From a virus: 64,000 bases of DNA. The stretch is taken from IMG/VR virus record IMGVR_UViG_3300032093_000041, positions 1 through 64,000 of that record, one strand, 5' to 3'. A model generated the notes under the pieces. It saw only the letters and a program-made list of their open reading frames with translations, was not told the origin of the DNA and made no database searches. This document shows positions 14 through 64,000 of the stretch, in pieces. The position numbers were made by a program, and so were the translations under genes. The first letter of the stretch is position 1. Each line of letters starts with the position of its first letter.

Positions 14-2998
<2,985 letters not shown>

Positions 2999-40374: not shown

Positions 40375-41019
40375 GTGGATACTTTTGAGAAATTTCTCTC
40401 CAATAAAATTATAATTGTAGACGAAGAAAAGGCGGGCGGACCTGCCGGTGCTGTCATCCCCCAGGAAAGACTTACTGGCGACGTACTAAAAGGTCGGGGG
40501 CCCAGAAGGGGAAATCTCGAAAGACTCCTTAGATACTGGCGTCCAATAATGAAAAAACCGGGCGGCTTCAGGCGTTGTCGCGTAATCCTGGCAGACCATC
40601 CTGAGCTTTACCCACTGGAGAATATCTGCGCTTGGTTGCATCATGAAACAACGGGTCTATGGCCTAACGAGGGATGCCACCACCCCGGCATGAAGAACTG
40701 CAAAAAGAAGCTTAAAAAGGGCACCCAGGGCAGCCTTTGGACAGACAAAGACTTTGATGACAGGATGAGAAAACTTACATCTAGGGCGACCAGAAAGAGT
40801 CTACAATTTTCTGGTGTAGTAACCCCCGATGAGCCGTTTGCGCCAGTAATCACTAATGAAGATTACGACCATGCTTTTAAGGTTTTACAAGATTTCTTTG
40901 AAATGGAACCAGACTTTTGCAAAATGCTCATAGACGAATCCAGCTGGGAGCATACGCATGGTTTTGAAACTCCTAAAATTAAGATGGTCCCGGTAGATGA
41001 AGACAGTATCTCTTTCTGA
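40375..41019 (+). CDS. Conserved-looking phage protein with GRGPRRGN…RYWRP and CAWLHHETTG motifs
   Basis: A 214-residue protein starting with GTG seven bases after AAGGA. A basic block (GRGPRRGNLERLLRYWRPIM), then GGFRRCRVILADHPELYPL and ICAWLHHETTGLWPNEG, form a motif series I associate with head-region proteins of actinobacterial and environmental phages. A Lys-rich stretch (CKKKLKKGTQ) follows. The role is unknown; capsid or scaffold-linked packaging is possible. Its end overlaps the start chosen for the next gene by 23 bases. Confidence 0.55.
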   Translation: MDTFEKFLSNKIIIVDEEKAGGPAGAVIPQERLTGDVLKGRGPRRGNLERLLRYWRPIMKKPGGFRRCRVILADHPELYPLENICAWLHHETTGLWPNEGCHHPGMKNCKKKLKKGTQGSLWTDKDFDDRMRKLTSRATRKSLQFSGVVTPDEPFAPVITNEDYDHAFKVLQDFFEMEPDFCKMLIDESSWEHTHGFETPKIKMVPVDEDSISF

Positions 41020-46000: not shown

Positions 46001-49000
46001 ACCCATTTCAATGCAGGCACCGGATATCGACATAAACGTTTACTCCGACGAGCTTCGCAGAATGGAAGAAAGCGGAGAGTCGATAGAGGCACGCAATGCA
46101 CTTCCACCGATAGATGGCGTATATGACTGGTTGCTCCCAGATAACTTTTCCGCTGGCAATGATTGGTGGGGCTCTGGCGTAAACCAGCAACGAATAGACA
46201 CCCTTAATGCTTCATTACACGAGCTTGGAGGTTCATTCTTCCCGCTCGTATCGCAACGCGATATTGACCGTTTGCCGCAGCTTGCTGAAGAAGGCAGAAA
46301 GTGGCTAGAAGACATAAATGACCCTGACAAGGATTCTGCTCCTGGAGAAGTATCCAACTGGGGTTTTGCCGAATGGAAAGAGTATGGAGGATATACATAC
46401 GTTTACGATTCGAGGAACGAAACAAAACCGCCCATTGCAATCGTAAACAACGAATCCGGCACAACGCACATGATTGGCAAAGATGGCCAACACCTTATGA
46501 CTCTGGTCACGAGAGTGGCTCCATCTGGAGAAACTGTATTTTTGCCCGTTGGCTCAAACTCGACGCATAAACGGCTCGACAACATCACTGAGCAGCCGGG
46601 ATTCTTGCAGACAGTTTTAGGTAAATTCCGTAGACGCCAACAGCAAGACATAAACCCAGAGCAGATTATCCCTGGTCTTCGTTCCAGAGAACGAGCATTC
46701 ACTCGTGGCGACAATACAATTGAGGACGTTCGTTCCCAGTTTGAGAATGGGACACCTTCAGATACGTTCCCATACTCATTTGCAACAAAGCAACGTACTG
46801 GCGCATTAGCTCCAACTTCTCTTACAACTCTTCAGGAGGAGTCACTGCTAGAAGAAGCAGATAAACTGCAGGTACAAATCGCCGATGACTTTAGACGTCA
46901 ATTGGGTCTAAACAAAAAAGACCAACTGACCGAAGAGGCAATCAAAGACCTCATTGATGACCTCCAACGTCGTGGCAAAAAACGCGAAGCTGGAATTGCA
47001 ACAAACAACCTTCACGACCTTGCCGTACTTGATGACATGTTGCAGTCACGAGACGTTATGCATGTCAACAACCTAAAGCCGGGCCGCAGGCATCTACTTT
47101 TAGGCACAAGCGTAAACCCAGTACCAGACTCCGAGCAAAAGCGCCGCCGCGCAATGACGCCAGACATGATTCACGTTTCCAGTGATTCAAGAGCAATGGA
47201 TTCAAGGCTTTCAGACAGAGGGGACACAGACCCAGCAACGTCTAAGAGAACATATCCGAGTGGAGCAATAAATCTCTACGAACCGTCTGAAGAGTCGTTT
47301 ACGCCTTCATCGCCAAGGCCGCAAACTGGACCAGCCCTCATTCCGGGGGAGGGCGATGCTACTGGAACAATTGTTTATCAAAACGGAATGTATTTTGATA
47401 CGTCAACAAACCGTTACGTAGAAGACTTAAGTGGTCTCGATTTTGAATCAGCAGACTTTGTCCATGTTCCTGTTCCTTTAGAGGAATCTTCTACAAACGG
47501 AATCGACGATTTAGGCGGGGAGTTTCCTAAAATTCTTCTTACTTCCGGACCTGGTGCTCCTAGTCGACAATCGGCAGTCATAGCTCCTGGAGTTTCAAGC
47601 ACGAATCCAGAAGCCGCTCTTACTTCTAGGCCAGATGCTGTTAATGCCGTCGTAGCAAAACCGAATTCATTTACCGAAGCATTTTACTTAGTAAGAAATA
47701 GATGGCGTCAGATTGCCGCAACAAAACCTGCCGACCAGACTGAGCCATACCGAAAGCTGACAGACAAGATTGGCGCAGACCCAGCTCCGACTGCATTTAT
47801 GCTGTCGTCGCTGTTGAGCCCGCTTCTTTCTAAGGCAGACGGTCTGGAATCAGAAGAAGGCGTGTCTCTATATTCAGCACCAATTCATTCCCCTACGCTT
47901 TCCGGTAGCGACAATGCCGCAGGAATATTGAGGGCAATAAGAAACGCATCAAGAAAATCACCAACAGAAAACGGTCTTTTCTCTGATTACTTACCTGGTT
48001 CATCAGGCGACATTGTCTCGTATTCTGGTATGGCAGTTGGGCCCCACGCACCCCGTGGGCAGACGGTACTTGACGCAATAGGCGTATTTGCTGACTTGCC
48101 GTTTGAGACTGTTTATATACCGAGCACCCAACCAATAGCTCCAAATGTGGCGCAGCACAATAGTTTAGCGAATGCAAACCGAACATTACTTGATACAAAA
48201 ATATTCCGGTCGCTGAACGCTGCACTCCAGTTGGATTACGCGTCGCAAAAAATGCGTCAGCTGCTGGATAGCGGCACACCACAAGAAATAACTGGCTGGA
48301 ACGACACATGGGGTAAAAGATTCGGCGGAAGATTTGACATAACACAAGCAGATATTGAGTCTGTCGAGCAGCTACGTGATGCAGCGTGGCAGCGTGCGGC
48401 GGAAGACCTTTCGTCCGTTGCTAAAAATGCTGGTGACCGCAGAAACGACTTCCTTAACCAGTGGCGTAATCGCTCCCAATTCCGCCCAGAGAATCGCGAG
48501 ATAGACGCTGAGCTCAGCATTGCCACCGAATACATCACTAATGGTGTTATTGCTGAGCAAGCGGAGTACCTACTCACTAAGCACATACTCACCAATCCAC
48601 GAATAATGCAAAGCCTTGCTCAGTCCGAGCTTGTATCTTTAGAGTCGCGTTCAAGAGAAGCGAACAAGAGAATGGAGAGGCTCGAAGCTATACGTAGTGC
48701 GCAAACCGCACTAGGTAGGCGCTCTATGCCTGGGTATTCACCAGAAGACATTGACCCCATTGAATTATTGCCAGTACTTGATAGACACGGTGATGGTGTT
48801 GTTACAAACGCATCACTGCGCGACCCAGCAGAAATAGTCGAAATATTGTCTGACCACAAATCTCTTGGATTTGGAGCTCCTTTAGACATAGACCCAGCAA
48901 CTGGAGAATATGTTCCATCCATTTTAACCGACGACCAAATGGAAGCATTGGCGCTAATAGATTACTCAATCCGTAGAAATCTAAGCCAAGGAAGTCCAGC

Positions 49001-50411
49001 AGATGAATACGGATATACCGGCATGCCGGAAGCAAACACCGTATTTGGACACCTAGAGCTAGACAATTTACCTCCAGAGAACCTAACTGGCTGGCAACGC
49101 CAATCCCCAGGAGCCGCTGCAGTATGGTCTCTTATGGAGGCTTCTGGATTCAACGGAAACCCACTATTGCTTGATGTAGAAGAATTTAAAGAAATAGCTA
49201 AAATTGAAGATTCATCAGGAAAACGACAAACTCTAGTTGTAACCAGAGGTATCGATTCTCATGGAAGAAACTCAGGAAGTTTTCTCACCAACTTGCTCCT
49301 AAGAGCTAAACGCTCGCTTCTTGGTTCAGGCGGAGCACAGCATGGAACGGGAGAATATTGGAGCGCTCAGCCTTTTGAATGGCGCTCAAACAGTGAGTCT
49401 TCGGCAATCGGAATGATTGTGCGCGGAAATCACAGGGTAGGTTCGCATGAATTGCTCGTAGGTACCGACAGCTCAGCAAGAACTAACGGCTCGAATGGTA
49501 TCTTGTCGGATTTATTTTACGAAGCCACGTGGGCTGTTGCAAACGCACTTGGTGCAAGAGGTTTCGGCAGCGGTACAAATCCTAGTCACGGACAAGAATA
49601 CGCAGCAGATATCCCAGTTAATTCAGTGAAAATAGACCCTGTTACCGGACTGTATGACCAGGCCGACCTGGATAACCTACAACTAAAAATCCTGGAACTG
49701 ACCAGGGCGTTTGACCCATCACAAGGCCTCGGTAGCGCTGGCCTGATGACCCTTGAGAAGTGGGCGGACAGAAGAAATTTTGTTACAGATTCCATAATCC
49801 CAGACCTTGCTGGTGGAGCTGCAGCTTCAAACTTCGACCGCAATGAGTCAGCAATCAGGGAAAGGCAATTTTTAAATGCCTGGCTTGGCCAACACTTGAG
49901 CTGGATGGTTCAACTGGCACAAATGCGACGAGATGAGTCTGACCGGGTCAACGGAAAGGAAAACGCTCAGTGGAATAGGCGTCTAGATGCTGCTCAGCAC
50001 TCCATCGTGATGATGGACCCAAATGCCAGAGCAGCAATGATGGGGTATGACGTTCTGATTAGACATGACCAGAACAGTCATAACTGGAGCAGCAGGAGTC
50101 AATACGACACAGACGCCAGTTATAGGTTTGGCGATTATGATTTCTGGGAGCAAGACAGCAGCAGAATAACACTCCATAATCCGAAAGTGTTGCTGATGTT
50201 AAACAGAACAGCCACTCCGATGCTGAGGCGTGTCCATTCTTCTCAGACATGGGCCGTTAGAAGCAACCGGAGCGGAGGGCATTTCCTTGATGGGTCAGGA
50301 CTGACAATCGCAGACATATTGCAGGAGATACCAGCAAATCCAACAACACCTGAAGAACAATATATCGCCGATACTCTTACTAGGTATATAGAATTATGGG
50401 GCGGACTATGA
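43059..50411 (+). CDS. Polyprotein B: 2450 residues, ISGRM motif and C-terminal ADP-ribosyltransferase-like domain
   Basis: Starts one base after the previous stop. Near residue 181 is the RCP-GGQFTN-C motif. Basic, charged helices follow to about 350. One ISGRMS motif occurs at residue 867, splitting the protein into about 870 and 1580 residues. The last 400 residues fit an ADP-ribosyltransferase: R2063 in VVTRGIDS, then H2095-G-T-G-E-Y-W, a GTNPSHGQEYA segment, G2329-Y-D (MMGYDVL) and N2382-R-T (LMLNRTATP). The GYD and LNRTA pair is typical of ART domains in phage head-associated proteins. The middle ~1000 residues are unrecognised, with some DRHGDGVV calcium-like loops. The function is inferred. 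Confidence 0.8.
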   Translation: MKQISLVKDKIDGSPFAVLLIDKGSVTAYGSPGQGEDWAEWVNSQETSVEEIQDVLDVRLVAEPSIPAKKFNESSISSYLGQEAMDLLMAELNKKALLEIVQVKSESQPQEYDEEDLPDYTPISVWPLSEISLASIDVAYKSQLADYKAKAFNADRNRRALALEVKWARAIWDNDRQGWRCPPETTNGGQFTNRMGLGCTTGLVRRLGQSLMSIEDRNKLQMQLPGLEDPRGFLYRSGSLIDQRAETRQREFADRQERRAARRVRSLIEKEGKKEQERLAKENKRKHRSGESLRDIYSSFTPDASRVSRARAAGAVKLRRFASNVEQESLRNIGASQQRRDRRVRDVSEEKLDSKKIRKLRDFGGKIPGSKLGGYVQYDKMMADDKGQAVDINGELMVPRVLVDMDEMHSNPYYGREFLTDDSGNQVENFHANHKWVTVEEVLAMASINRATKPAHDWIEMRKGRGFPGDETIEFVEAKELRKIQKDNGFIGVRSSLKDKGKGRFDGDTRGKGKKKTKPAQGGSIGDMEFEPDELPPTVAKRFGDAWRDSRKRLGSWIANLDPLLDEDQKTRREKRRRQKASKSKDSSAINGANILQSLFSDIDDPIEATVRYAQLSNFKEPEFRDWYDYTTNNKPVPERREDWNFGFNSVIGEPTPHFARLKNLIDGIVSEHAAGVLITADDSEDPDITKFIFQDYDFSTKFRSGQIGNVYNVRVVTRTDGVEEVRQIAVDSISLNRWTDNPLDENRQPITATDAGLYMLWSNTTFLDVPEDVVERAASGQMPTFELVELAAKQWVDPGYHGAQPPAFYYDQATKWHEHYRVIGFNQKGAPLYIKGAGGRGRTGSTSVHIPGTSNSVVDTRTGGLISGRMSQETIITPEGQRALDDPNVNIWTGEQNFLVLDGGPAPGRGRRRRRTSGPTPQSPGVVSRFLDGEGRQLSRERRSARRMLKGRTPKDTRPIRQRIEAALYERSRRRSGEPRPISMQAPDIDINVYSDELRRMEESGESIEARNALPPIDGVYDWLLPDNFSAGNDWWGSGVNQQRIDTLNASLHELGGSFFPLVSQRDIDRLPQLAEEGRKWLEDINDPDKDSAPGEVSNWGFAEWKEYGGYTYVYDSRNETKPPIAIVNNESGTTHMIGKDGQHLMTLVTRVAPSGETVFLPVGSNSTHKRLDNITEQPGFLQTVLGKFRRRQQQDINPEQIIPGLRSRERAFTRGDNTIEDVRSQFENGTPSDTFPYSFATKQRTGALAPTSLTTLQEESLLEEADKLQVQIADDFRRQLGLNKKDQLTEEAIKDLIDDLQRRGKKREAGIATNNLHDLAVLDDMLQSRDVMHVNNLKPGRRHLLLGTSVNPVPDSEQKRRRAMTPDMIHVSSDSRAMDSRLSDRGDTDPATSKRTYPSGAINLYEPSEESFTPSSPRPQTGPALIPGEGDATGTIVYQNGMYFDTSTNRYVEDLSGLDFESADFVHVPVPLEESSTNGIDDLGGEFPKILLTSGPGAPSRQSAVIAPGVSSTNPEAALTSRPDAVNAVVAKPNSFTEAFYLVRNRWRQIAATKPADQTEPYRKLTDKIGADPAPTAFMLSSLLSPLLSKADGLESEEGVSLYSAPIHSPTLSGSDNAAGILRAIRNASRKSPTENGLFSDYLPGSSGDIVSYSGMAVGPHAPRGQTVLDAIGVFADLPFETVYIPSTQPIAPNVAQHNSLANANRTLLDTKIFRSLNAALQLDYASQKMRQLLDSGTPQEITGWNDTWGKRFGGRFDITQADIESVEQLRDAAWQRAAEDLSSVAKNAGDRRNDFLNQWRNRSQFRPENREIDAELSIATEYITNGVIAEQAEYLLTKHILTNPRIMQSLAQSELVSLESRSREANKRMERLEAIRSAQTALGRRSMPGYSPEDIDPIELLPVLDRHGDGVVTNASLRDPAEIVEILSDHKSLGFGAPLDIDPATGEYVPSILTDDQMEALALIDYSIRRNLSQGSPADEYGYTGMPEANTVFGHLELDNLPPENLTGWQRQSPGAAAVWSLMEASGFNGNPLLLDVEEFKEIAKIEDSSGKRQTLVVTRGIDSHGRNSGSFLTNLLLRAKRSLLGSGGAQHGTGEYWSAQPFEWRSNSESSAIGMIVRGNHRVGSHELLVGTDSSARTNGSNGILSDLFYEATWAVANALGARGFGSGTNPSHGQEYAADIPVNSVKIDPVTGLYDQADLDNLQLKILELTRAFDPSQGLGSAGLMTLEKWADRRNFVTDSIIPDLAGGAAASNFDRNESAIRERQFLNAWLGQHLSWMVQLAQMRRDESDRVNGKENAQWNRRLDAAQHSIVMMDPNARAAMMGYDVLIRHDQNSHNWSSRSQYDTDASYRFGDYDFWEQDSSRITLHNPKVLLMLNRTATPMLRRVHSSQTWAVRSNRSGGHFLDGSGLTIADILQEIPANPTTPEEQYIADTLTRYIELWGGL

Positions 50412-50799: not shown

Positions 50800-53700
50800 A
50801 TGCTTATTGAAAACGAAGACGAGAAGCCTAGGAACAGAAAGCTTCGACGCAACAAAAAAAACTGGGAAAAGCTTAGAGAAAAACCAATTGTCGCTATCGA
50901 TACCCTGTCTGGTGGCGGTCTTGTTTCAGGTCAAATATCGGGCAAAGCTCTGGGAGGACGCATAGGTCGTCGTATTGGTGGAGCCTCTAAGCCAATGGAT
51001 ATGAATCCGACTACAGCAAGAGACGCCGACATGGACGGAATGGTCTTAGAGGGCATACCAACAATTCGCCAAGGAAGAGGAATGCCAGACCCCACACCGG
51101 GAGGCGAAGTCGCCGGCCGAATGGGCAGGGAGCAAAATAAAGAAGAGTTTGTAGGTGTAGACAAGCTTTTGCGCCAACATTTTTCACAGTTTGCAAAGTT
51201 TCAAGAATGGACGAAAAACAAAGATTGGAACGCATTCCATAGAAACCATTTTGACTGGTGGATGTTTCCAATCCCTCTCGGTTCTAATTCATATAGGGAT
51301 GAGTACAACATTGCCGGGGAACCGCTAGAAGAACTACGGCAAAACAAACGCTACATGGCAACGCTGGCGAGCGCAATGAGGATGTACACACGTTCAATCG
51401 GCTGGGACATGGACAGTCAAGAGTGGATAAATAACGCCGAAATAGAACGTGGGCAAGAGCCAGTTAGAAGCCTTAATCGTGCTCGCTTACTCAAAATTGC
51501 CCAGTCAGCTGAAGCTCATGGTCTAGATAATGAACTTAGCTCGATGAGCCACATGGTCAACGACATGCGTTCGAACGGCATCCCAACCGGAAATGATGAA
51601 TACTGGAATTCTATTTCTGGAAGGATGAGCAATCCTGATAGACCAAATTTTCCACTTAACCCAAAACAAGGCGACACTTTCTCTTCAGATGACCCAGAAG
51701 ATACAAGAATATGGAAATTTGATGGAAAGTTATGGGTTAGGCAAGACGGAGGCGGAAGACGCTCCGCGACAGTTGGGTTCCGTAAAGCCGGTGGCAGCGG
51801 GGGTAAAAGTATATCTCCATCAGCTTCTTCTATTAGGGCTGGTTCAGAAAGAACTGTAAAATATGGTTCGCCAGCTTTCGATGAGCTGTGGGAACGCCGC
51901 GACAAAGAAAACGAACAGGCGGACGGCACCAACCTAACATTTGACTGGAAAAATGAAGAGTCAAGGCTTTACTACTTATCAGTATTTGGCAAATTTCCCA
52001 ATACTCATCCTAAAAATAGAAAAAAAGTGGGATGGGCAAAATTTGGTGGGGGTAACGAGCCTGGGAATTATTCTGGGGGAACTCACTCCTGGATTGCTGC
52101 AGTAAAGAATCAATTGCGTGAACTTGGAATTTCACTCGTCCCACAAGAACACCCTAAAATGGGGGACCAATATGGAAGCTGGATTTCTTTCTCCGGCAGC
52201 CCTGGTGCGTCTGCTGCAGAAGGAGCATCAGCAAAACAGCTGTTATCTCATCTTGCAGAAACAATTAGCCCTGATACATTCTATGAACACTTTGAAGCTT
52301 GGATTAGAAATCCATTTGTAACAGCACAAAAAAACGGCAAAGACGTTGGCGTAAGACTTGCTTTCAACAATGATAAAGAAAAGCTTTTAAATGAATACCG
52401 GCGTAGAGTTATAGCGCTACGAGATGCATTGTACTCTCATTTTGGTAACGAGGTTGACGAAGTTGCCGAAACAATGGTTAAGCCCCTAACAGACTCATCA
52501 GGAAAATCCAGCACCAATACTGGGAACGATTGGGTAGACCTAACAGAAAATGCTAGATGGGCTTCCAACTTAATCAAACAACAAGTATCAAATATTCTTG
52601 AACAAGAAAAACCTCGCAGCGAAGAACGCCTTGCATATCTTTTAGATTCGCGACTGCAATCAAAGCTACCTGATGAAATAAGGCAACAAATACGAACATC
52701 TCCTAGTTTTATTAGAGGCTTGCTTCAAGAAGAATTCAAAAACAGGGACTGGGGGAGAGGAGATAATTTCTCCCAAATAGATTTAATGCCCTCCGTTGAT
52801 GACGAAACGGTGTCCCTGATTGAAGAATTAGCTGACGAATTTATAGAAAAACTAATAAGCGAAAATGCCGATGTGAGCGTAGTAAGTGACGCAGATTCTA
52901 AAAATTTCATTGATTCATTTGTTCAGGATTCCTCAATGCGGACATCCGCAGCAAAGCCGATGTTGCAGAGCAAACTCAGCAACAGAATAGCTAGAGGACA
53001 AATTTCTGGGAAAATGGGAAATACCCCAGAAAATGACATAGAAGCGAAAGACCTTGAATACGACCCCGACACGCCAGAGCATTTAGGGAACCATTTCACA
53101 TCGAAACATGAAGGGTACGACGTTAGGCCTAACCCTGTAGACAACGTCTTGGATGCGCGCAATACCGGCGCACCACTGGAGTGGCTCGTACCAGGTTCGT
53201 ATCACCCAGAAATAAAAGAATTAGTCAATGGGCTGACGGACAAGGTATTGGAGCTTGGGTTTGCTAGTTACCTACAAACAAATCCAGACTTCTACATGGG
53301 CTCTAAAGATACCGCTGGTCGCGATGCAGCATCGGAATTCAGAGGTTGGCTCGGAGGATGGATTGGAGCAACTGTTTCCAAGATAATGGCCTTGGGTGAT
53401 TTTGGTGAAGATTTTGAACTAGACGACGGTCATAGGGACTTCATAAGAAATTTCGTAGGAGACATGGCCGACACAATGACCCGCTTCTCTGACATACCGC
53501 GTGAAGACCCTGACGGTCGTGGCGGCAACACAATGCAAGTGCTTCGTGGCCTTATTTCTCGTGTTCCTGGATTTGGTTCAGGGGGAAGTATGACAAGCGA
53601 CCTAAGTCAAGAAGTAAATGACATAGCCAGCGGACTAGCAATGCGGGCCATACACGCAGGGTTAAAAATCAACAACATGCAACGTATGGGTATTAGCGAT

Positions 53701-54603
53701 AGACGTAGGGCGAACCAAGACACACTTGACTGGTGGAACTCTGCCATAGGCGCTGGCCTGCTTTCTACATCTCCTAGCGATTATGAGTCGATAGACGATA
53801 TTGGATACGAAAACCTAATGAAAGAGTCGCAAGTATCTGTGGCCATGCCTATTAATGCTGTTTTAAATATGTTTGCTGATAACGAGTTTAAAACGCTATT
53901 TGAAACAAACACCAGCCAAGGCAATGTCAACACTTCAGCTCGGGCCGCAGCAGAATTTGCGATGTTCGGAATCCTCCCCTCATATAAGGGGAAGAGGCCT
54001 GCTTACGGAATTTTGCACGTCGGCGGAATGACAGAAGATGCAATAAAAAACACGAACCAGTACGGACCCATAAGAATTGTCCTAAACCCCGACATGAATG
54101 AAAAGGTTACTTGGACAGAAATTGACTCACTGTCCTTGATGTCAACAGCTTCAACGTTAAAGAACCCGTCACAGCATGGGCTTTTTGGACAAAGGCTTAC
54201 TTCTGACACCCCCTTTACAAGGGTTTCGGCAGCCGACATTATCTCTCTTATCGAGCGTGGCCGAGATGTATCAAATAGCGCAGACGACAAGAGTGCCATA
54301 GGTAGGTCCAAATATGCAGAAGCTCAAATTCATTCAAAGATAACTCTGGAAGACATTCAATACATTGTCGTTGACGACACCGACTTTAGATGGGGGGATA
54401 TTGATTTTCCTCCATTTGGTCCTGATGGGATGATTCTGATGCAGGACGACGATGGTTATGAGGAAGCAGCAGATGAATTTCCCGATGACATTATGGATTA
54501 TGAAGGATTTATTCAGATATCCAAAATTGCAGAATCTCTTAACATTCCCGTTGTTCTGCTCAGTGATATAACAAATGCTGGCGAAGAGGTGGTGAGGCCG
54601 TGA
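50800..54603 (+). CDS. Polyprotein C: 1267 residues with three SGRM/AGRM-type motifs
   Basis: Begins two bases after the preceding stop. N-terminal cassette at residues 68-104: MNPTTARDADMDG, then EGIPTIRQGRG and DPTPGG, followed directly by AGRMG at 105. ISGRMS at 272 is followed by NPD, and ISGKMG at 735 by NTP; an ISGKA occurs at 46. Between 735 and the end is a helical region (TMQVLRGLISRVPGFG) and then a domain near 1068-1175 (AYGILHVGG, YGPIRIVLNP, YAEAQIHSK) shared with polyprotein A. The C-terminus is very acidic. The 272-735 segment has a KLWVRQDGGGRR beta-turn start and is otherwise unknown. The cargo role is inferred. Confidence 0.8.
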   Translation: MLIENEDEKPRNRKLRRNKKNWEKLREKPIVAIDTLSGGGLVSGQISGKALGGRIGRRIGGASKPMDMNPTTARDADMDGMVLEGIPTIRQGRGMPDPTPGGEVAGRMGREQNKEEFVGVDKLLRQHFSQFAKFQEWTKNKDWNAFHRNHFDWWMFPIPLGSNSYRDEYNIAGEPLEELRQNKRYMATLASAMRMYTRSIGWDMDSQEWINNAEIERGQEPVRSLNRARLLKIAQSAEAHGLDNELSSMSHMVNDMRSNGIPTGNDEYWNSISGRMSNPDRPNFPLNPKQGDTFSSDDPEDTRIWKFDGKLWVRQDGGGRRSATVGFRKAGGSGGKSISPSASSIRAGSERTVKYGSPAFDELWERRDKENEQADGTNLTFDWKNEESRLYYLSVFGKFPNTHPKNRKKVGWAKFGGGNEPGNYSGGTHSWIAAVKNQLRELGISLVPQEHPKMGDQYGSWISFSGSPGASAAEGASAKQLLSHLAETISPDTFYEHFEAWIRNPFVTAQKNGKDVGVRLAFNNDKEKLLNEYRRRVIALRDALYSHFGNEVDEVAETMVKPLTDSSGKSSTNTGNDWVDLTENARWASNLIKQQVSNILEQEKPRSEERLAYLLDSRLQSKLPDEIRQQIRTSPSFIRGLLQEEFKNRDWGRGDNFSQIDLMPSVDDETVSLIEELADEFIEKLISENADVSVVSDADSKNFIDSFVQDSSMRTSAAKPMLQSKLSNRIARGQISGKMGNTPENDIEAKDLEYDPDTPEHLGNHFTSKHEGYDVRPNPVDNVLDARNTGAPLEWLVPGSYHPEIKELVNGLTDKVLELGFASYLQTNPDFYMGSKDTAGRDAASEFRGWLGGWIGATVSKIMALGDFGEDFELDDGHRDFIRNFVGDMADTMTRFSDIPREDPDGRGGNTMQVLRGLISRVPGFGSGGSMTSDLSQEVNDIASGLAMRAIHAGLKINNMQRMGISDRRRANQDTLDWWNSAIGAGLLSTSPSDYESIDDIGYENLMKESQVSVAMPINAVLNMFADNEFKTLFETNTSQGNVNTSARAAAEFAMFGILPSYKGKRPAYGILHVGGMTEDAIKNTNQYGPIRIVLNPDMNEKVTWTEIDSLSLMSTASTLKNPSQHGLFGQRLTSDTPFTRVSAADIISLIERGRDVSNSADDKSAIGRSKYAEAQIHSKITLEDIQYIVVDDTDFRWGDIDFPPFGPDGMILMQDDDGYEEAADEFPDDIMDYEGFIQISKIAESLNIPVVLLSDITNAGEEVVRP

Positions 54604-54826: not shown

Positions 54827-57800
54827 ATGACTGATACGCAGAACATAGACATTGAGCAAAAAGACGTTCTTGGGGCTCCGCGCAGAGTGCGCACTACCGA
54901 CCCGGACGTTTTCTCTGACCCAGAATCGGCCAGAGTTGCTGCGCGACGTCTTGGATGTATTGGGATTAGAAGATATCTAAACCGCTCAGGCGGAGAGTCA
55001 TGGATGCCATGCACCAATGAGTCCGACTACAGAAAATATAGCGGGATAGGTGTTTCTGGTCGTAGGTTCCGACGCCAGCAGCTGGAAAGAGATATCAGGC
55101 AAATCACCGGCCGAGGCAAGCTTGCAAAGAAGACTTTAGAAGAAGCTGTCGAAACGAAAGCAAGCAAAAAAAATAACTACACAAAGCCGGAATTGCGCGA
55201 GAGAATCAAGCAGCGAATTATGGCTGGCTCTGAGGGTGGAGCCCCCGGACAGTGGTCTGCAAGAAAAGCGCAAATGCTCGCTCAGGCGTATAAAAAAGCA
55301 GGTGGCGGATACAAGACTGGCGGAAAAAGCAAAACGCAACGTTCGCTTTCTTCGTGGACTAAAGAAAAATGGACCACGAGCGACGGTAAAAAAGCTCGCA
55401 GAGGTAGCTACACCAGAAGATACTTGCCAGCTAAAGCGTGGTCAAAGCTGACACCGGCGCAAAGAGCGGCTACCAACAGGAAGAAAATACAGGGTTCTCG
55501 CAGCGGAGAACAGTTTGTCCCTAATACGGATGCGGCAAGAACGGCACGCAAACGTTCAGTTAGGGGCGTAAAACACGTTGAGTTTTATGACGGCATCGAA
55601 ACAAAATCAATCGATGGTCTGATAGAGGAAAAGGCATTATCTCGTCGTTCTTCCAGAAGAACTCTTAGAACTCCTGGTGCGTTGCGTCCTAGATTGGGAG
55701 CAACCGGACAGGATATGAATCCCGCAACAGCGAGAGACGAAGACCTAGACGGCTTAGTTCTTGAAGGAATTCCCACAATTAACCGTGGTCGCGGTGTAAT
55801 TGACCCAACCCCGGGCGGAAGACCGAGTCGGTGGGTGCCAAGAATGCGGCCTCAAAGGACGCAAGCGCCAACACCGGAAGAAAAACCTCAGCCTCGTAGG
55901 CAGTTGCTCCAGCGACCAGAAAGATTGCCAAAACCAAAGGCTGAAAAAGTACGCGAATCTAAACTTAATTGGCTCCCAGAAGATGCTGATAAATGGACAG
56001 AAGACGATGCCCAGAGGTTGCTCGATACGCAAAAAGCTTCCGGTCTTTCTTACGGTGAATTTGCAAAACAGAACGGACTTTTTGCTAACGACGTTCGTGA
56101 ATCAGTAGAAAGACAAAAGTCTCGACGCAAAAAGCGCATCAGTGCTTTTCGCAAAAATAACCCCAAACTTTTTGCTGCTGTTAACAGTTTTGGAGCTGTT
56201 AAAGACGAGGCAATGGAAGCGGTTTCTAGAGGAAAAGTTAACAACTGGGGCTCACTTGTTTCATGGGCGTTTAAAGACAATGACTTAAAGCGCCAAAGAC
56301 TAAACGACAGGGCGGTAAACGACCTATTTAACAATGTGTCAAATGGTCTTGACCCAGACGGAAAGTCAGATGTAGTTCTTGGTTTTGTGCCGTCGCGCAC
56401 GAAACAAGGAGAAATGACTAAGACTTTTGCCCGAGCAAACAATCTTCCCGATGGTTTCGTTAGTAGATACAAGACTCCGAGAACAGCCATACAGCCAGCT
56501 AGAAGAATTACTTCCACGGCCGAACGAGCAGAACGTCGTGGAGAGCGACGCGTTGGAAGAATAAGCAGAGACATAGAGGCAACAGCTAGGGCGTTTGAAA
56601 GGTTTGACGCTATTTCCGGCCGCATGGGTGGGATATCAGGACGCATGGCAACACCGTCTGGCCCAGACTCACAGTGGACAAACCAAGAAAAAGCACAGTG
56701 GAAAGCCGGTCAGTGGCGTAAGAGGTTCCTCTTCGATGAAGCCCTAAGTACTGCAAGGGTTAATTTATCACCTGAAATGCAGGCACATATTGCCAAGTAT
56801 CCTGATGCCGCAACTGCAGCAAGAGCAATCCTTGACCTATCTGACCAAGATTTAGACAAGCTGTTCAAGGGTCATAATGACGCGCTCAAAGCAGCGAACG
56901 TAGCCATTAAACCTCCAAGAAAAGATGAACTTCCGCTTCTTCCGTCTGAAGTTGCTGCAGCAGCACAAATCAAACGTCCTCTCGTTAGAAGCTTCCTTGA
57001 TGAGTACAAAAAAATGGCACCGAATGGGACTTTGTCGCGTCTTGATGTTGACGTACTCTCTAATGAAGACATTGAAGAACTGTTTAATCGCTACATACTG
57101 CCAGAGATGGTCGACCCAACAAAGCTCGATGCTGCTGGTGTAATTGATGTTGCCCAGAGAATTTCTCAACCGGGCCAAGAAAATTCACCGCTGCGCCTGC
57201 TGGACAATCTTGCATATATGGCCGGCGACGATGCGATGAGCCTGGAAGCAAGAAGAAGAGTTCTTCAAGAAAAACTTGCCGCTGGTGTTGCTCAGGGAAC
57301 CATGACCCCGGCTCAACAGCAGGCAACACAAAATGCGCTTGATGCCCTAGATGAAGAACTAGCAAAACTAATAGCTGACTACGAAGCTGGAAAGCCTTTA
57401 GATTCGTCTATACCGTTGCAGCCTTTAGACGACCCGAGGCAAATGCCAAGATGGGCTGGCGGACGTAGGGCGCTTAGTTTTGAAGACCCAGTAACAGCAG
57501 ATGATTACATCATGTTTTTGTTGGAAAACAATGACATTGGCTTCCACCCAGAATGGGGTCCAATCACCAAGCCTGAATGGGAGAACTGGTCAGAAGACAT
57601 ACAGGAGAGGGCCGCAGAAGCAGAACGCGTCTATAGAGAAGGCGGAGAACTAGAAGCTAAAGACGCCATAGACGCTTTGAATGCAGAGTATCAGCAATGG
57701 ACACAGGTTGGTCTTGAGGCAGGATGGATTCAAGAGCCAGAAGAAGACGAAGAGTTTGAAGAACCGCAGCCTGAGCGCCCAATACGTGATGAGTTTGGTG

Positions 57801-60800
57801 TTCTCGATGAAGATTGGGTATGGAACACAGAACACGGTTCCCCCGAAGAGCTTGGCGTAACCGACGACCCAGCAACGTGGGCTCAACACCCGGACAACGT
57901 CGAAGACGACGGCGTAACCCTAATCCCACTTGACGAACTAGAAGAATTGATTCTCAAGTATGCGCCGAAACAGTTTCAAGCTGACCTTCTCGAAATACTA
58001 AAGCCAAGTGAGTGGACAGACCCACACAACGGTCATATCGACCAAAGATACATTGACCTCCCGCCCGAATTAATTGATTATTTTGTCGGACAAGCAATGG
58101 GAACAATGCCGCCGACCCCATCAAGCTCAGGACAGATGCCAACACCAAACCTTGGTGGAATACAAGGTGATGGAGTTGGACTTTCCGACCCGGGCGGACC
58201 AAGACTTCGCAAGGGCATACCTTTTATACCAAGGAACATCAACTGGGACTCTGCATTGCGCATGTTCCAGCGAATTCTAAATAAACAAGGAAAACAAGCA
58301 TCGTCAAAAGGCTCTTATGCAACTGCAAGTCGCCAGTATGACCCAGCACTTGGTGTTTATGACGACTGGGGTGCACTACAGCTACAGAACCAGTTTGTAG
58401 AGGCTGCAAAGGAAGCCCGCGAGCTTTACGTTACGGGAACTGGACAAGATTCTCGCAAAGCTCGAGAGCAGGTTTGGAACCTTCTTCAATCAGGAAGAAC
58501 TCCGCAAGAAATAAGCCATGAACTGATTATTTTTGGTGCAGACCAGCCGGACACAAATAGGCCTCCTCAGCCAATTGATTTGCGTGACTTGGTTAAAGCT
58601 GCAGCAACACAGTACGCAATAGATAACAACATCAAAACTTCAGATGTAACAAAACTTCTCAATGCAGCAGACCAGGCTTTCAATTCTGATACAGCGCGTC
58701 AAGAGGCGTTTAGGAGAAGCCAGCTTGAGCGCTTGCGTGACGACCTAACCCGTCTATTTAGCGGCCAAAGCCCACAACAAATCATTAGCTCTATTGATGG
58801 TCTGATTGAAGAAACAGAAAGAAAGAAATGGTTTGCTGACCAGGCATACAGAATTGAACGCGGACATGATGCTCGGTTAAGAAAAGCCGCTCTTGACCTT
58901 GCTGAGTCATATCCTGTTCCAACCGCTCGTCGCGCAATATTTATGGAACCAGATGGGACCATAACTGACAGCCCAAGCCGTAGAGCAAAAGCCCTCTATC
59001 AGGAGCCATACACTGGCGAAGTAACTGACGACGACACGAGGGGATGGCCTCAGGCGTTTGATGAAGGTTATGACCCAACACAAATAAGTCGGGCACGCCA
59101 TGCTAACCGCATATATCGCTGGTGGAGACAAAACTGGGGTTACATCGAGCGAAACGAAAATGGTGAAATTACTCGCGAATATGTAGGTCCGCTGCAGGGA
59201 ACACTAAAGGCTCATCAGCTTCACGCACGTAAATACGGAAACGAAGGTCTTGCTGGAACAACTGCGTATGCAACAAGAACAGCAGATTCTCGAGTCCAGC
59301 AGCTTCGTGAAGTAAAAAGAACCATAGAGGGGGCGCGGCAAGAGGGTCGAGGCATGGGAATATCTGGCTTCATGCGAAGCGGTGGGCCGAACCTTTACGA
59401 TGAATATTCACGGAAAGCAGCTCGCGTACTTGTTTCGGGACGCCGCAAAAACAAACCTTCATCAATGCTGCTTGGCTACGATTCTGACGAAATGCCAATT
59501 ACAAGAGCAATGAGGACGGCATTTTCTGGAGGAAGTGGGAAGTTCCTTGGAGCATCTAATGAGCATTCATTTGCTGCATTAATGAACCCCGAGAACGTTG
59601 ACTACTTTAAACATCTATCACCGGTGGAGAAAGACTACTTTAGAGCCCTCTACTCAAATCCAGACTTTGTCGTTGCCGTATCAAAAGATGTGACTGCACC
59701 GCTGCCGAACAGAACACGCGGTGCTTCCACCGTCTCCCCAGACGAAGCAATAATAAATGCATTCCGTTCGTCTATGGATGCAACGCGACCAACGATTTCT
59801 GGTCAGATGGGATTGAGGAGAACGCTAAGCAACGCTAGCAGAGTTGCAAGATACAACCCTGAGAGATGGCAGCGAGAATATTTAACAGCTAGAAATAGTT
59901 TCCGGATGACCTCGCCTTTCAGGGGCAAGAAAAAGCAGAACTACAAGCTTGAACAAATAACTCTGAAAGACAGCGTTTTTAAGCCAGTAGAAGGTCTTTA
60001 TCTTGTAGATGCAGATACAAAAAATGTTATCGACGGACCTTTCAAATCAGATGAATTAGGTTTATTGGCCAGTGAAAAAGCCAAGGGCGCAGAAACAAGC
60101 GTTATATCTAAAAATTATCCTCGTCCATGGGAGCAAATGCCTGAGATTCAGGAGCTAATTGCTAACGGCGTGAGTAATGAATTGCGTGATTTTATGACGC
60201 TGGACTCACACAAGATAAGCGACATACGCAGCACTGTTTACGACACTATTGAAGGCAAAATTAACCAATATGCACTAGACCTTGATAAGGGCGTCCCACA
60301 GAAAGCGTCAGATACGGCAATATTTAGTCGCGACCCTGATACGGGGGCGCTAATGGTTCTTCTTATACAAAGAGCGTTCGGTCCACACAAAGACGATACC
60401 GGTGCATGGGTTCTCCCTGGAGGGTTTGCTGACCCTGGCGAAACCGCACTAGAGACAGCATTGCGTGAACTAGAAGAGGAAGTAGGACTAAAAGTAAGTC
60501 CGACAGATGCGCGCGTTAAGCAGATAGGAACAATAACAGCACCAGACTGGGATGTGCGCTTTACAAAAGGCGTAGAGGTCAGTGGTACTGCGTTGTTTGT
60601 ATCTCCAGACGCTGCCTTTAAGGCTGGAGATGACGCGCTGAGAGCGCAATGGTTCCCTGTTCAGGATATAGCGGACGGAAAACTTCCAATCGGGTTCGGA
60701 CATGTCGCGTGGATTAAGAACGCTATGGCTCTGGAAGTTGATGACCCGGCAAACTATGGTCCTGACTACGAAAGTTTAAGAACAGGTTTAGACCGTGTTG

Positions 60801-63800
60801 AAAGAGCAACGCGTGCTAGGAATAAAGAACTAATTGAAATTTCAAACAGCTGGCGCAAAGAACTGAATAAAGGCAGAGCAAAAGCCGACAAGATAAAACT
60901 TTTTGACGAAAAAAACCTTGGTTCATATTCCGCTTGGGAACTAGCTCCATCAGACGACATGATGAGGCTCGGCTCAATATCCCGCATGAGGCTAATGGGC
61001 AGAGAGGTAACTCCAGAATCTATTGCCGCGGACGTAGAAAGAACCCGTGAAAACCGTCTATCCAGAGTTGGTTCAAATTTTGGTCCGTCAATATCTGGAC
61101 GCATGGGTGAAGGGTTTGAAAACAACATGAACGACATGCACTTAAGAGGCATGTCGTCTGACGAAATAAAAAATAAGCTGCGCCAAGAAAATGGCGTCAG
61201 TGAAGAGGATATAAATCGTTACGTTCTCTATAGCGGAATACAGTTGTCTAAAACTTCAGACAATGTTTCAGCTTCAGAGCGAAAAATGTTTGACGAGATG
61301 ATATCCAGCGGAGGCTCAATTAGAGACTTGGCAAAAAAGAACAAAATATCTTTTACGGAAGCAATGGATGTTGTTGTAAAAGTAGAGTCTTCAATCGGCA
61401 ATAGAGAGCCGGCCATAAATGCAGCATTGCGCAAAGCAATTATGAATGATTCTTTTATTTCTGGAGCAGAAAAAGCGGCGATGGTGCAGCGACTACATGG
61501 AGCATCGCGTGCCTCTGTAGCAAAATTTATGGGTATGTCGGTGGAGCGATACGGGGAAGTAGAAGCATCGATAATAGACAACCTAAAAGCTCGCAACCCG
61601 AAAATGTTTAAGTCTGCCGGTGCATGGTCTTCAAATCCAGAATCCTTATTTGCAGAACAAGATATTTTTATGCGTTATGTTCATGGCAAGCAGCCACTAA
61701 ACCGCATAGCAGAAGACCTTGGCATGACCGAAAAAATGGTCGATGGCATAGTAAAGCGATACGCCAGATGGAAAAATTCAAATGCTCCTCTAGAGAGAGC
61801 AGCAATCAAACAATCAATTTCGCAGTTTGGTTCAGCATTGAACGCTGGTGAAATTCAAATGATGCGTCGCTTGTCGGACGGAGAAAATATATTCCAATTC
61901 TCCGAAAGAACAAACATGCCGAAGAAAGCTGCAATACGCATGTATAACTCGGCAATGCGTAAAATGCATATGGAATCCGGAGTTTCTCCTCTTTCAAGAA
62001 ACTTTGACGCCAACATATATAAGGCGATACCTAAAGAGTGGATTTCTCCGTCATTCTTGTTCGAAAAAAATCCACCGAAGGCAACTAGGGCAATATCTGG
62101 CAAAATGTCAGACGTAGCAAAGAGCGCTAACAAATTTAACGCAGAAAAACGTTCTTACATGACATCCCCTATGTCTGCTTTGCGCGAAAAAGTAAAAGAT
62201 ATTCGCCAGGAAATGAGAGACCAAATACAGAATCTTTCATCTACGTCGGCTTATATGCATCCAGTATTTGGAGGGCAAGAAGGCATAGACAAAATGGCGG
62301 CGCTCGGTGCTTACATAAAAAGGACAATAGATGAATCTGTCCTAGAGGCTGTCGTGGATGCCGCACGAAAGTCAGGCTCACGGTTTTCAGGAGATAGAGA
62401 AGAAATTGCTAAGCGAGCAATGAATAAAGCTCGCAAATCTTTGATGGAAGATTTGTGGATGAAGAGAGAAATGATTGATTTTTCTCTCGACATGCATGAA
62501 ATGATTGAATCCGCATCTTGGCCATGGAGAATGTGGCAGCCAGACAGTCCTGAATGGCAGCGCCATAGGAACATCCCAGAGCTGATGGAAACATACAAAA
62601 CGAACACGCCAAAGGGTCGCCAGGCATATATAAATGCCGGCTTCTACATGCCGCTTGGCGATAATGAGATGTTTGAATTCCTAAATGCTGTCGAGGAAAA
62701 CAATTCCATTAGCGGGAGAATGTCAAACCCGAGACAGTGGGCTCAATCTAGAGACCTATACGACATAATTGGAGTTTCGGAAACAGCAACAGACGAAGAG
62801 CTAAAAAAAGCCTTTAGAGCTAAATCTCGCGTGCTTCACCCAGACGTTAACAATTCTCCAGATGCTACTGAGCAATTCAAAGAACTTGGATTCGCATGGG
62901 AAACACTAAGCAATAGCAGGTTAAGAAACCAATACGATTCATGGCGAGCAGGACGAACTTCACGCCAATCTTCTTCGGCGAGACCAAATAACACAGACAT
63001 TGCTGACGATGACATTGACGTAAGTCAATACACAGACCAAGACCTATATTTATATGACGATAAGGGTCGCCTATGGCCGCGGCATAACGCAAATAGAGAC
63101 GACTGGCCTACCGCTCCGTTTACTCAGTCAACCGTGTTCCCGCAACGCCAATGGGTCGAAAAAGAATTTGACGAATGGTCAGACTGGACTCGCCACGGCA
63201 TACAGCCATCACGCCCAGCAGGAAGTGCTCTATGGGGTGAGGGTAGAGGTACGCGAGACCTTGGTGGTGACGGTGAGATTGATGACGATGGACAAGGAGG
63301 ACCTGGCCCATCTTCTGGACCTCGTGGGCCATTTAATCCAACTTCAGGTAGCCCTGCTAATGCCTACTTCGTAGAACAACAAGTTAGGCGTGACCTTGGT
63401 CCGGATGCAACTGACGAAGAAGTGCTAGCTGAGCTAATCAGGAGAATGACCGGTGGTGGGCGTGGCCCATCAATGAGCTCTTCTCCTGGTTCAATATCGG
63501 GTCGCATGTCATCGTCGTTCCCTCCTCTTGATGACAGCGTTCAAAAACGTCTTGGATTGCAAAATCTTCCTAGTTCATATGACCAATCTGAACTTACGAA
63601 ACAGCATCCAAAACTTACGTTTGATGTTTACAAAGCCAACATTGGCGAACCATCTGTTGAAGTAACCACAACATTTGGCGGAAAGTCAAATGTCAGCAAG
63701 TATCGCTACGACAACGTTTATCGCCCCATTATTGATGCATTGGTAGCAGGAGTACAACGCCCTACTGGAGGAAAGCGTAAATTTGTTTCAGTTGGTGGGC

Positions 63801-64000
63801 CAGCTGGTTCAGGCAAGACTACAGACAGAAAAACCGGCGCTCACAATATCCCAACACCAGGGTTTGCGCTCCATGTTGATGCTGATGAAATAAAAACCCT
63901 TCTACCCGAGGCAAGAGCACTTCATGCTGCCGGAAACCCAATGTGGGCGAATGCTGTTCACGAAGAATCACGTGTAATAGCGGACCTTGCACTGCAAGAA
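54827..64000 (+). CDS. Polyprotein D: giant frame open at right edge, with DUF5872, Nudix, HTH, J-domain and zeta-like kinase parts
   Basis: At least 3058 codons with no in-frame stop; the 3' end is outside the window. C44 and C62 lie in a GCIG…WMPC motif. Residues 118-245 form a DUF5872-like domain (PGQWSARKAQML, GSRSGEQFVPNT). Residues 297-333 hold the MNPATARDEDLDG/EGIPTI/DPTPGG cassette. Processing-type motifs occur at 596, 603, 1657 (SGQM), 2089, 2423 (SGKM), 2628 and 2890. The Nudix box is at 1866-1888 (GFADPGE…RELEEEVGL), with four HTH-like helix pairs at 2163-2375. A J-domain begins at 2643 with HPD at 2671-2673. A P-loop (VGGPAGSGKTT) is at 2989-2999, followed by D3018/D3020 and an EES helix as in zeta toxins. 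Domain calls are strong; joint function as cargo is inferred. Confidence 0.85.
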   Translation, partial: MTDTQNIDIEQKDVLGAPRRVRTTDPDVFSDPESARVAARRLGCIGIRRYLNRSGGESWMPCTNESDYRKYSGIGVSGRRFRRQQLERDIRQITGRGKLAKKTLEEAVETKASKKNNYTKPELRERIKQRIMAGSEGGAPGQWSARKAQMLAQAYKKAGGGYKTGGKSKTQRSLSSWTKEKWTTSDGKKARRGSYTRRYLPAKAWSKLTPAQRAATNRKKIQGSRSGEQFVPNTDAARTARKRSVRGVKHVEFYDGIETKSIDGLIEEKALSRRSSRRTLRTPGALRPRLGATGQDMNPATARDEDLDGLVLEGIPTINRGRGVIDPTPGGRPSRWVPRMRPQRTQAPTPEEKPQPRRQLLQRPERLPKPKAEKVRESKLNWLPEDADKWTEDDAQRLLDTQKASGLSYGEFAKQNGLFANDVRESVERQKSRRKKRISAFRKNNPKLFAAVNSFGAVKDEAMEAVSRGKVNNWGSLVSWAFKDNDLKRQRLNDRAVNDLFNNVSNGLDPDGKSDVVLGFVPSRTKQGEMTKTFARANNLPDGFVSRYKTPRTAIQPARRITSTAERAERRGERRVGRISRDIEATARAFERFDAISGRMGGISGRMATPSGPDSQWTNQEKAQWKAGQWRKRFLFDEALSTARVNLSPEMQAHIAKYPDAATAARAILDLSDQDLDKLFKGHNDALKAANVAIKPPRKDELPLLPSEVAAAAQIKRPLVRSFLDEYKKMAPNGTLSRLDVDVLSNEDIEELFNRYILPEMVDPTKLDAAGVIDVAQRISQPGQENSPLRLLDNLAYMAGDDAMSLEARRRVLQEKLAAGVAQGTMTPAQQQATQNALDALDEELAKLIADYEAGKPLDSSIPLQPLDDPRQMPRWAGGRRALSFEDPVTADDYIMFLLENNDIGFHPEWGPITKPEWENWSEDIQERAAEAERVYREGGELEAKDAIDALNAEYQQWTQVGLEAGWIQEPEEDEEFEEPQPERPIRDEFGVLDEDWVWNTEHGSPEELGVTDDPATWAQHPDNVEDDGVTLIPLDELEELILKYAPKQFQADLLEILKPSEWTDPHNGHIDQRYIDLPPELIDYFVGQAMGTMPPTPSSSGQMPTPNLGGIQGDGVGLSDPGGPRLRKGIPFIPRNINWDSALRMFQRILNKQGKQASSKGSYATASRQYDPALGVYDDWGALQLQNQFVEAAKEARELYVTGTGQDSRKAREQVWNLLQSGRTPQEISHELIIFGADQPDTNRPPQPIDLRDLVKAAATQYAIDNNIKTSDVTKLLNAADQAFNSDTARQEAFRRSQLERLRDDLTRLFSGQSPQQIISSIDGLIEETERKKWFADQAYRIERGHDARLRKAALDLAESYPVPTARRAIFMEPDGTITDSPSRRAKALYQEPYTGEVTDDDTRGWPQAFDEGYDPTQISRARHANRIYRWWRQNWGYIERNENGEITREYVGPLQGTLKAHQLHARKYGNEGLAGTTAYATRTADSRVQQLREVKRTIEGARQEGRGMGISGFMRSGGPNLYDEYSRKAARVLVSGRRKNKPSSMLLGYDSDEMPITRAMRTAFSGGSGKFLGASNEHSFAALMNPENVDYFKHLSPVEKDYFRALYSNPDFVVAVSKDVTAPLPNRTRGASTVSPDEAIINAFRSSMDATRPTISGQMGLRRTLSNASRVARYNPERWQREYLTARNSFRMTSPFRGKKKQNYKLEQITLKDSVFKPVEGLYLVDADTKNVIDGPFKSDELGLLASEKAKGAETSVISKNYPRPWEQMPEIQELIANGVSNELRDFMTLDSHKISDIRSTVYDTIEGKINQYALDLDKGVPQKASDTAIFSRDPDTGALMVLLIQRAFGPHKDDTGAWVLPGGFADPGETALETALRELEEEVGLKVSPTDARVKQIGTITAPDWDVRFTKGVEVSGTALFVSPDAAFKAGDDALRAQWFPVQDIADGKLPIGFGHVAWIKNAMALEVDDPANYGPDYESLRTGLDRVERATRARNKELIEISNSWRKELNKGRAKADKIKLFDEKNLGSYSAWELAPSDDMMRLGSISRMRLMGREVTPESIAADVERTRENRLSRVGSNFGPSISGRMGEGFENNMNDMHLRGMSSDEIKNKLRQENGVSEEDINRYVLYSGIQLSKTSDNVSASERKMFDEMISSGGSIRDLAKKNKISFTEAMDVVVKVESSIGNREPAINAALRKAIMNDSFISGAEKAAMVQRLHGASRASVAKFMGMSVERYGEVEASIIDNLKARNPKMFKSAGAWSSNPESLFAEQDIFMRYVHGKQPLNRIAEDLGMTEKMVDGIVKRYARWKNSNAPLERAAIKQSISQFGSALNAGEIQMMRRLSDGENIFQFSERTNMPKKAAIRMYNSAMRKMHMESGVSPLSRNFDANIYKAIPKEWISPSFLFEKNPPKATRAISGKMSDVAKSANKFNAEKRSYMTSPMSALREKVKDIRQEMRDQIQNLSSTSAYMHPVFGGQEGIDKMAALGAYIKRTIDESVLEAVVDAARKSGSRFSGDREEIAKRAMNKARKSLMEDLWMKREMIDFSLDMHEMIESASWPWRMWQPDSPEWQRHRNIPELMETYKTNTPKGRQAYINAGFYMPLGDNEMFEFLNAVEENNSISGRMSNPRQWAQSRDLYDIIGVSETATDEELKKAFRAKSRVLHPDVNNSPDATEQFKELGFAWETLSNSRLRNQYDSWRAGRTSRQSSSARPNNTDIADDDIDVSQYTDQDLYLYDDKGRLWPRHNANRDDWPTAPFTQSTVFPQRQWVEKEFDEWSDWTRHGIQPSRPAGSALWGEGRGTRDLGGDGEIDDDGQGGPGPSSGPRGPFNPTSGSPANAYFVEQQVRRDLGPDATDEEVLAELIRRMTGGGRGPSMSSSPGSISGRMSSSFPPLDDSVQKRLGLQNLPSSYDQSELTKQHPKLTFDVYKANIGEPSVEVTTTFGGKSNVSKYRYDNVYRPIIDALVAGVQRPTGGKRKFVSVGGPAGSGKTTDRKTGAHNIPTPGFALHVDADEIKTLLPEARALHAAGNPMWANAVHEESRVIADLALQE

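What the first reader, a model, noticed from the sequence alone, without database searches (positions are those of the whole stretch)
62708..63511. J-domain directly behind an ISGRMS motif
The DnaJ signature (DLYDIIGVSETATDEELKKA…HPD) starts about ten residues after the motif and is closed by another motif at 2890. A packaged J-domain could recruit host DnaK to refold injected, partly unfolded cargo. That would suit proteins that pass through the narrow tail tube.
Basis: partly seen in the sequence, partly recalled or inferred. Interest (0 to 1): 0.75.

Follow-up and report, generated by a model that had tools for sequence, protein, structure and literature searches.

The report
J-domain cassette in phage cargo polyprotein
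An actinobacterial phage carries a genuine chaperone-recruiting J-domain as one of about a dozen cassettes in a giant protein encoded among its head genes; the cassettes are separated by a short signature that related phages have each rewritten in their own version, which suggests a packaged multi-enzyme load that is cut into pieces at these signatures.

Summary
ORF 54827-66610 (3927 aa; it runs past the window) has a full-length J-domain at aa 2643-2704, window 62753-62938 (PF00226, positions 1-63/63, E 8e-20, HPD intact). The J-domain starts 10 residues after ISGRM (2628-2632). The next ISGRM (2890-2894) lies just before a zeta-type kinase.

The J segment is one cassette of a motif-delimited polyprotein. 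The gene lies between the portal/S78-protease genes and the major capsid gene of a contractile-tailed phage. ISGxM occurs 17 times in this block against about 0.1 expected. Relatives have their own version (I[ST]GKM, PSGSM, GPxGxM, EAGM, RLSSG). At the zeta junction the versions occupy the same position; the next residue is biased to G/S/A; the codons differ between copies. Three modules lie in different proteins in different phages, each between motifs.

Most likely mechanism: tagged precursors enter the prohead, are cut after GxM, and a 29-kDa fragment with a near-N-terminal J-domain is ejected and recruits host DnaK.

Limits: the capsid protein lacks the cargo motif. At least three relatives' J-domains lost HPD. 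Four relatives with the same NUDIX and zeta modules have no J-domain. A general need to refold cargo is therefore not supported.

The parts
54827..64000 (+). Giant cargo polyprotein gene (3927 aa, continues to 66610 in the record), directly upstream of the major capsid gene (66936-68279)
55712..55819 (+). Conserved tag peptide DMNPxTARDxDxDGxVxEGIPTxxxGRGxxDPTPGG (aa 296-331), upstream of the first motif; proposed head-targeting signal
   Evidence: function inferred
56612..56647 (+). Tandem motifs ISGRMGGISGRM (aa 596-607)
60317..60676 (+). NUDIX domain module (aa 1831-1950)
   Evidence: PF00293 E 5e-16
61091..61105 (+). Motif ISGRM (aa 2089-2093)
62093..62107 (+). Motif ISGKM (aa 2423-2427)
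62708..62722 (+). Motif ISGRM (aa 2628-2632) before the J-domain; proposed cut after M2632
62753..62938 (+). J-domain (aa 2643-2704), HPD at 2671-2673
   Evidence: PF00226 1-63/63 E 8e-20; PDB matches; selection
62939..63493 (+). Linker after the J-domain: a conserved block (DDWPxxPFT...EFDEWSDW...QPSRPAGSALWGE) and a Gly/Pro-rich fast-evolving tail
63494..63508 (+). Motif ISGRM (aa 2890-2894) closing the J cassette, immediately before the zeta kinase module
63761..64000 (+). Zeta-toxin-like kinase module (start; continues past the window)
   Evidence: PF06414; full-length match in relatives
30568..32925 (+). Head maturation protease gene: Peptidase_S78 (aa 30-175), DUF6321, own SSGRM at aa 321-325; candidate reader of the motif
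28189..30477 (+). Portal protein with C-terminal head-morphogenesis (MuF-like) region
34857..40028 (+). Cargo polyprotein P5, 4 ISGRM motifs, RNase_T exonuclease module (aa 838-1018)
40997..43057 (+). Conserved 686-aa protein with one ISGSM
43059..50411 (+). Cargo polyprotein P4, one ISGRM (aa 867)
50800..54603 (+). Cargo polyprotein P3, tag peptide at 50998-51105, motifs at aa 272 and 735 (and a VAGRM at 104), DUF3626 module

Best explanation
The segment is a J-domain cassette of a motif-delimited cargo polyprotein. SHOWN: (1) a full-length J-domain with HPD, kept by purifying selection; (2) cassettes separated by a short motif with lineage-specific versions, at matching positions where tested; (3) location in a conserved block running from portal and S78 protease to the major capsid gene, with the S78 protease fused to cargo polyproteins in several relatives; (4) three modules found in different polypeptides in different phages, always between motifs. 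INFERRED: the polyprotein enters the prohead through its N-terminal region or tag peptide (about 70%). The head protease, or a protease with its own specificity, cuts after the Met of GxM|(S/G/A) (about 55-60%). This frees a 262-aa, 29-kDa, acidic fragment (aa 2633-2894) whose J-domain lies 10 residues from the new N-terminus, close to the N-terminal position it has in free-standing DnaJ proteins. The fragment leaves the head with the DNA and, through HPD, recruits host DnaK (about 40%), probably for a restricted client such as the neighbouring kinase cassette or a host target, rather than for refolding all cargo.
For: J-domain. In other viral J-domain hits that I read as ORFs, the domain sits near the N-terminus of a protein of roughly 320-380 aa, and the only J-domains inside giant ORFs were those of this phage group. 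Motif: de novo search gives one dominant word per phage: ISG.M 17 vs 0.09 expected (G000), 16 (G002), P.GSM 15 (G011), GP.G.M 11 (G007), EAGM 12 and 18 (G008, G009), LSSG 9 (G034). Motif columns are retained in poorly conserved linkers, and ISGRM, EAGM, PSGSM and GPVG occupy the same junction before zeta. Residue after the motif is G/S/A in 19 of 22 copies (background 24%, p 1e-9); the bias holds in the six relatives tested, p 3e-3 to 6e-9. SPN3US protease gp245 likewise prefers Ser at P1' (PMC10052503). Codons of the copies differ, using both AGY and TCN Ser, so selection acts on protein. Every J-domain read has a motif variant just upstream: ISGRM, ITGRM, ITGKM, VVGRM, VTGQM, VSGKM, ISGAM, IAGKM. 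Module shuffling between motifs. Protease fused to polyproteins of 2758-5467 aa, with the tag after the protease domain.
Against: The major capsid protein has an invariant GG[RK]NGANM-type site in all lineages while the cargo motif varies, and a profile of the cargo motif does not pick that site; a head protease with one specificity would be expected to use the same site in both. Protease domains are about 80% identical across lineages with different motifs. RLSSG lacks the Met. HPD is lost in G005, G050, G004 and the second J-domain of G022. Relatives with the same NUDIX and zeta modules lack J. No virion proteomics exists for this group in the sources searched; no structure model could be made.
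Confidence: 0.45

Rival explanations
1. The motif is not cut. It is a repeated docking peptide that binds a head or scaffold partner, so the giant protein stays intact and the J-domain works, if at all, within it.
For: Lineage-specific versions of the motif need only a shared binding partner, not a protease. The capsid protein lacks the motif and the protease domain is about 80% identical across motif versions.
Against: Bias to G/S/A at the following residue in every lineage tested, which resembles a P1' preference. Modules lie cleanly between motifs. The protease is itself fused to motif-bearing polyproteins.
Confidence: 0.25
2. The J-domain acts in the producing cell before packaging: it recruits DnaK to the nascent giant polyprotein, keeping it foldable or packageable.
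For: The precursor is 3927 aa and the J-domain is part of it. PMC12619734 suggests that phage-encoded DnaJ may recruit host DnaK to assist assembly of viral proteins.
Against: Relatives with equally large or larger giants (5244-5437 aa) have no J-domain. Loss of HPD in some relatives.
Confidence: 0.2
3. The injected J fragment competes with or diverts host DnaJ/DnaK, for instance to blunt a chaperone-dependent defence or to favour phage replication.
For: DnaJ is required for phage sensing by the defence protein bNACHT25 (cited in PMC12619734). Patchy presence, duplication in G022 and loss of HPD in several lineages look like a part under changing pressure.
Against: No defence partner is known for this host. 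No PADLOC match in the J segment.
Confidence: 0.15
4. The J-domain is a passive leftover of domain capture without function.
For: Degenerate copies exist (G004, second J-domain of G022).
Against: pN 0.17 at saturated pS against G002, similar to the NUDIX and zeta modules (0.14-0.16) and lower than in flanking linkers. HPD intact in G000, G002, G003, the first J-domain of G022 and the Actinomycetota-MAG copy.
Confidence: 0.05

Closest known systems
Polyvalent proteins of phages and conjugative elements (Iyer et al. 2017, PMC5512222)
   Same: Large multidomain proteins encoded with virion genes and predicted to be injected; zeta-toxin-like kinases fused to MuF domains are described there.
   Different: The main text of that paper has no mention of DnaJ or J-domain. 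The repeated inter-module motif with lineage-specific versions was not seen in the passages read, and a literature search for ISGRM found nothing relevant.
Internal head and ejection proteins matured by a prohead protease (Salmonella phage SPN3US gp245, cleaving after AXE; T4 gp21)
   Same: One head protease, short repeated cleavage motif, several internal proteins, P1' preference for Ser, multiple cuts in long propeptides (PMC10052503).
   Different: There the cuts mostly remove N-terminal propeptides; here the motif divides proteins of thousands of residues into many enzyme modules. The capsid protein does not share the cargo motif.
Free-standing phage-encoded DnaJ/J-domain proteins (Lak phages, Atu_ph07, moraphages)
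   Same: J-domain of the same Pfam family.
   Different: Those read are separate proteins of roughly 320-380 aa with the J-domain near the N-terminus; here it lies inside a giant head-region polyprotein.
Gordonia and Brevibacterium myophages with related capsid protein (ChisanaKitsune, DalanDe, GMA6, Cantare)
   Same: Capsid protein 45-48% identical; extra genes between portal and capsid genes, including an annotated VIP2-like ADP-ribosyltransferase; DalanDe has a 1633-aa capsid maturation protease.
   Different: No copies of the cargo motif patterns tested in these proteins, and far less cargo.

Membership tests
J-domain proteins (PF00226) | Full-length match to the J-domain model above the curated cutoff | tested here: met
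   71.1 bits vs 27.8, positions 1-63/63
J-domain proteins (PF00226) | HPD tripeptide between helices II and III | tested here: met
   HPD at aa 2671-2673 here; lost in G005, G050, G004 and the second J-domain of G022
J-domain proteins (PF00226) | Four-helix J fold | tested here: inconclusive
J-domain proteins (PF00226) | Stimulates DnaK/Hsp70 ATPase | not testable with these tools
Class A or B DnaJ (zinc finger and/or C-terminal substrate-binding domains) | Further DnaJ domains in the same module | tested here: not met
   Only PF00226 and a sub-cutoff UBA_6 match in the 268-aa segment
Polyvalent proteins | Many effector-like domains in one polypeptide encoded with virion genes | tested here: met
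   NUDIX, HTH/sigma-region-4-like, J, zeta kinase, acetyltransferase-like modules between protease and capsid genes
Polyvalent proteins | Delivered into the host cell | not testable with these tools
   -
Prohead-protease substrates | Cargo shares the cleavage motif of the major capsid protein | tested here: not met
   Capsid site GG[RK]NGANM is invariant and is not picked by the cargo-motif profile
Prohead-protease substrates | Small residue after the scissile position | tested here: met
   G/S/A in 19 of 22 copies, p 1e-9; same bias in six relatives
Prohead-protease substrates | Observed cleavage in virions | not testable with these tools
   -

The most novel reading that the evidence does not exclude
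A widespread group of actinobacterial phages packages a modular arsenal as self-cutting polyproteins: tagged precursors enter the head, a phage protease with a fast-evolving specificity cuts many motif sites, and dozens of enzyme modules, among them a DnaK-recruiting J-domain, are delivered with the DNA. The motif and its reader switch together between lineages.
Probability: 0.35. Interest if true: 0.85.

Novelty: new variant of a known kind. Interest (0 to 1): 0.62.

Why it matters
If the reading is right, these common freshwater phages deliver a multi-enzyme load made as polyproteins, in the style of eukaryotic RNA viruses, with cassettes that can be exchanged at short cut sites. It would give sequence-based cut sites with which to predict unknown injected proteins in a large phage group, and a testable case of a phage bringing its own co-chaperone into the cell at the moment of entry.

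Tried and rejected
Motif as internal translation start: no Shine-Dalgarno-like sequence upstream of any of 18 motif ATGs; but only 2 of 9 gene starts checked had one either, so the control is weak; the RLSSG version has no Met. Motif as DNA-level recombination anchor: codons of the copies differ widely, including AGY/TCN serine. Motif identical to the capsid cleavage site: not supported; I had first taken the resemblance to GG[RK]NGANM as support. Literature search for ISGRM and for J-domains in injected phage proteins gave nothing relevant.

Full report
WHAT IS THERE. The window is part of a 105,678-bp virus record. ORF 54827-66610 (3927 aa) contains a complete J-domain at aa 2643-2704, ten residues after an ISGRM motif and followed, at aa 2890, by another. 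The J-domain aligns without gaps to solved J-domains, best with human DNAJB12 (2ctp, E 7e-18) and DnaJ 2 (9dyv). It is the only DnaJ match in the record.

GENOMIC SETTING. The record encodes a large terminase, a portal with a head-morphogenesis region, a head maturation protease (Peptidase_S78), a block of very large ORFs, then the major capsid protein; a tail sheath and a baseplate wedge protein indicate a contractile tail. A WhiB-type regulator and a close relative binned in an Actinomycetota MAG (capsid protein 88% identical) point to an actinobacterial host. The order portal, protease, ORF496, P5, O214, O686, P4, P3, GIANT, capsid is kept in close relatives, with rearrangements in more distant ones.

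THE MOTIF. In G000, [IVL][ST]G[RKQ]M occurs 16 times in the cargo block and not at all in other ORFs, against 0.07 in shuffles. A de novo search finds one dominant word per phage: ISG.M in G000 and G002, I[ST]GKM in G003, ITG.M in G004, PSGSM in G011, GP.G.M in G007, EAGM in G008 and G009, LSSG in G034, VSGKM in G051. At the zeta junction the versions lie in the same position: ISGRM (G000), ISGKM (G003), PSGSM (G011), EAGM (G008, G009), GPVG (G007). I have not shown that every copy in a genome has the lineage's version; G004, G005, G016 and G022 are mixed. The residue that follows is G, S or A far more often than expected in all seven phages tested. Copies within G000 use different codons. Together these say that a protein-level reader recognises the motif; a protease is the simplest reader, but a binding partner is not excluded.

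MODULES. The RNase_T exonuclease lies in P5 of G000 but in the 5467-aa protease polyprotein of G009; the acetyltransferase-like module lies in GIANT of G000 but in the P5-type ORF of G009; a P3 module lies in GIANT of G007 and G011. In each case the homologous stretch lies between two consecutive motifs; for the acetyltransferase-like module in G000 the match ends one residue into the motif at 3613. A tag peptide (DMNPxTARDxDxDGxVxEGIPTxxxGRGxxDPTPGG) stands near the start of P3, in GIANT, and after the protease domain in the fused polyproteins. In P3 a VAGRM follows it directly, and in G007 a motif-like PxGxM at aa 246 precedes it, so 'before the first motif' is a tendency and not a rule.

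THE J CASSETTE. J-domains were found in G000, in G001 (identical stretch), in seven of 50 further records and in the Actinomycetota-MAG contig. In all eight J-domains read by me a motif variant stands 10-14 residues upstream; the ninth, in the MAG contig, has IAGKM upstream. HPD is intact in G000, G002, G003, the first J-domain of G022 and the MAG copy; it is SPD in G005, GTD in G050 and absent in G004 and the second J-domain of G022. G016 was not read. G007, G008, G009 and G011 have NUDIX and zeta next to each other without J. The J-domain evolves under constraint similar to the NUDIX and zeta enzymes. A cut after the motif Met would give a 262-aa, 29.2-kDa fragment, pI 4.8.

INTERPRETATION. 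The J-domain is best read as one ejected cargo module that recruits host DnaK. Because relatives do without it and several have lost HPD, it is more likely to serve a restricted client or target than to refold the whole load. Packaging, cleavage, ejection and DnaK stimulation remain inferences.

WHAT I COULD NOT DO. Many records are fragments, so absence of J is firm only for the giants read through to the capsid gene. The sequences were sampled by similarity to this phage's genes, so frequencies are not those of nature.

Noticed in passing
55712-55819 and 50998-51105: A 36-aa peptide DMNPxTARDxDxDGxVxEGIPTxxxGRGxxDPTPGG shared by P3 and GIANT and found after the S78 domain in protease-fused polyproteins of relatives; a candidate head-targeting tag.
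   Followed up: partly
L205:2209-10482; L179-L180 (G009) ORF of 5467 aa: In several relatives the S78 head protease is fused at its C-terminus to thousands of residues of motif-bearing cargo.
   Followed up: partly
L201 (G022): Two J-domains in one 4175-aa protein, one with HPD and one without.
   Followed up: partly
window 34857-40028: P5 contains HETGH (an HExxH-type metallopeptidase motif) in a stretch without a Pfam match.
   Followed up: no
window 50800-54603: C-terminal DUF3626 match (E 1e-9) in P3.
   Followed up: no
window 14-2998 (-): 994-aa ORF dominated by collagen-like GxTGATG repeats, probably a tail fibre.
   Followed up: no
L004:19319-19657 (-), record 74145-74483: WhiB-type regulator, pointing to an actinobacterial host.
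   Followed up: yes
L323: Capsid relative (68% identical) in a contig binned as Phycisphaerae from an oxygen-minimum zone; could be mis-binned or a wider host range of the group.
   Followed up: no
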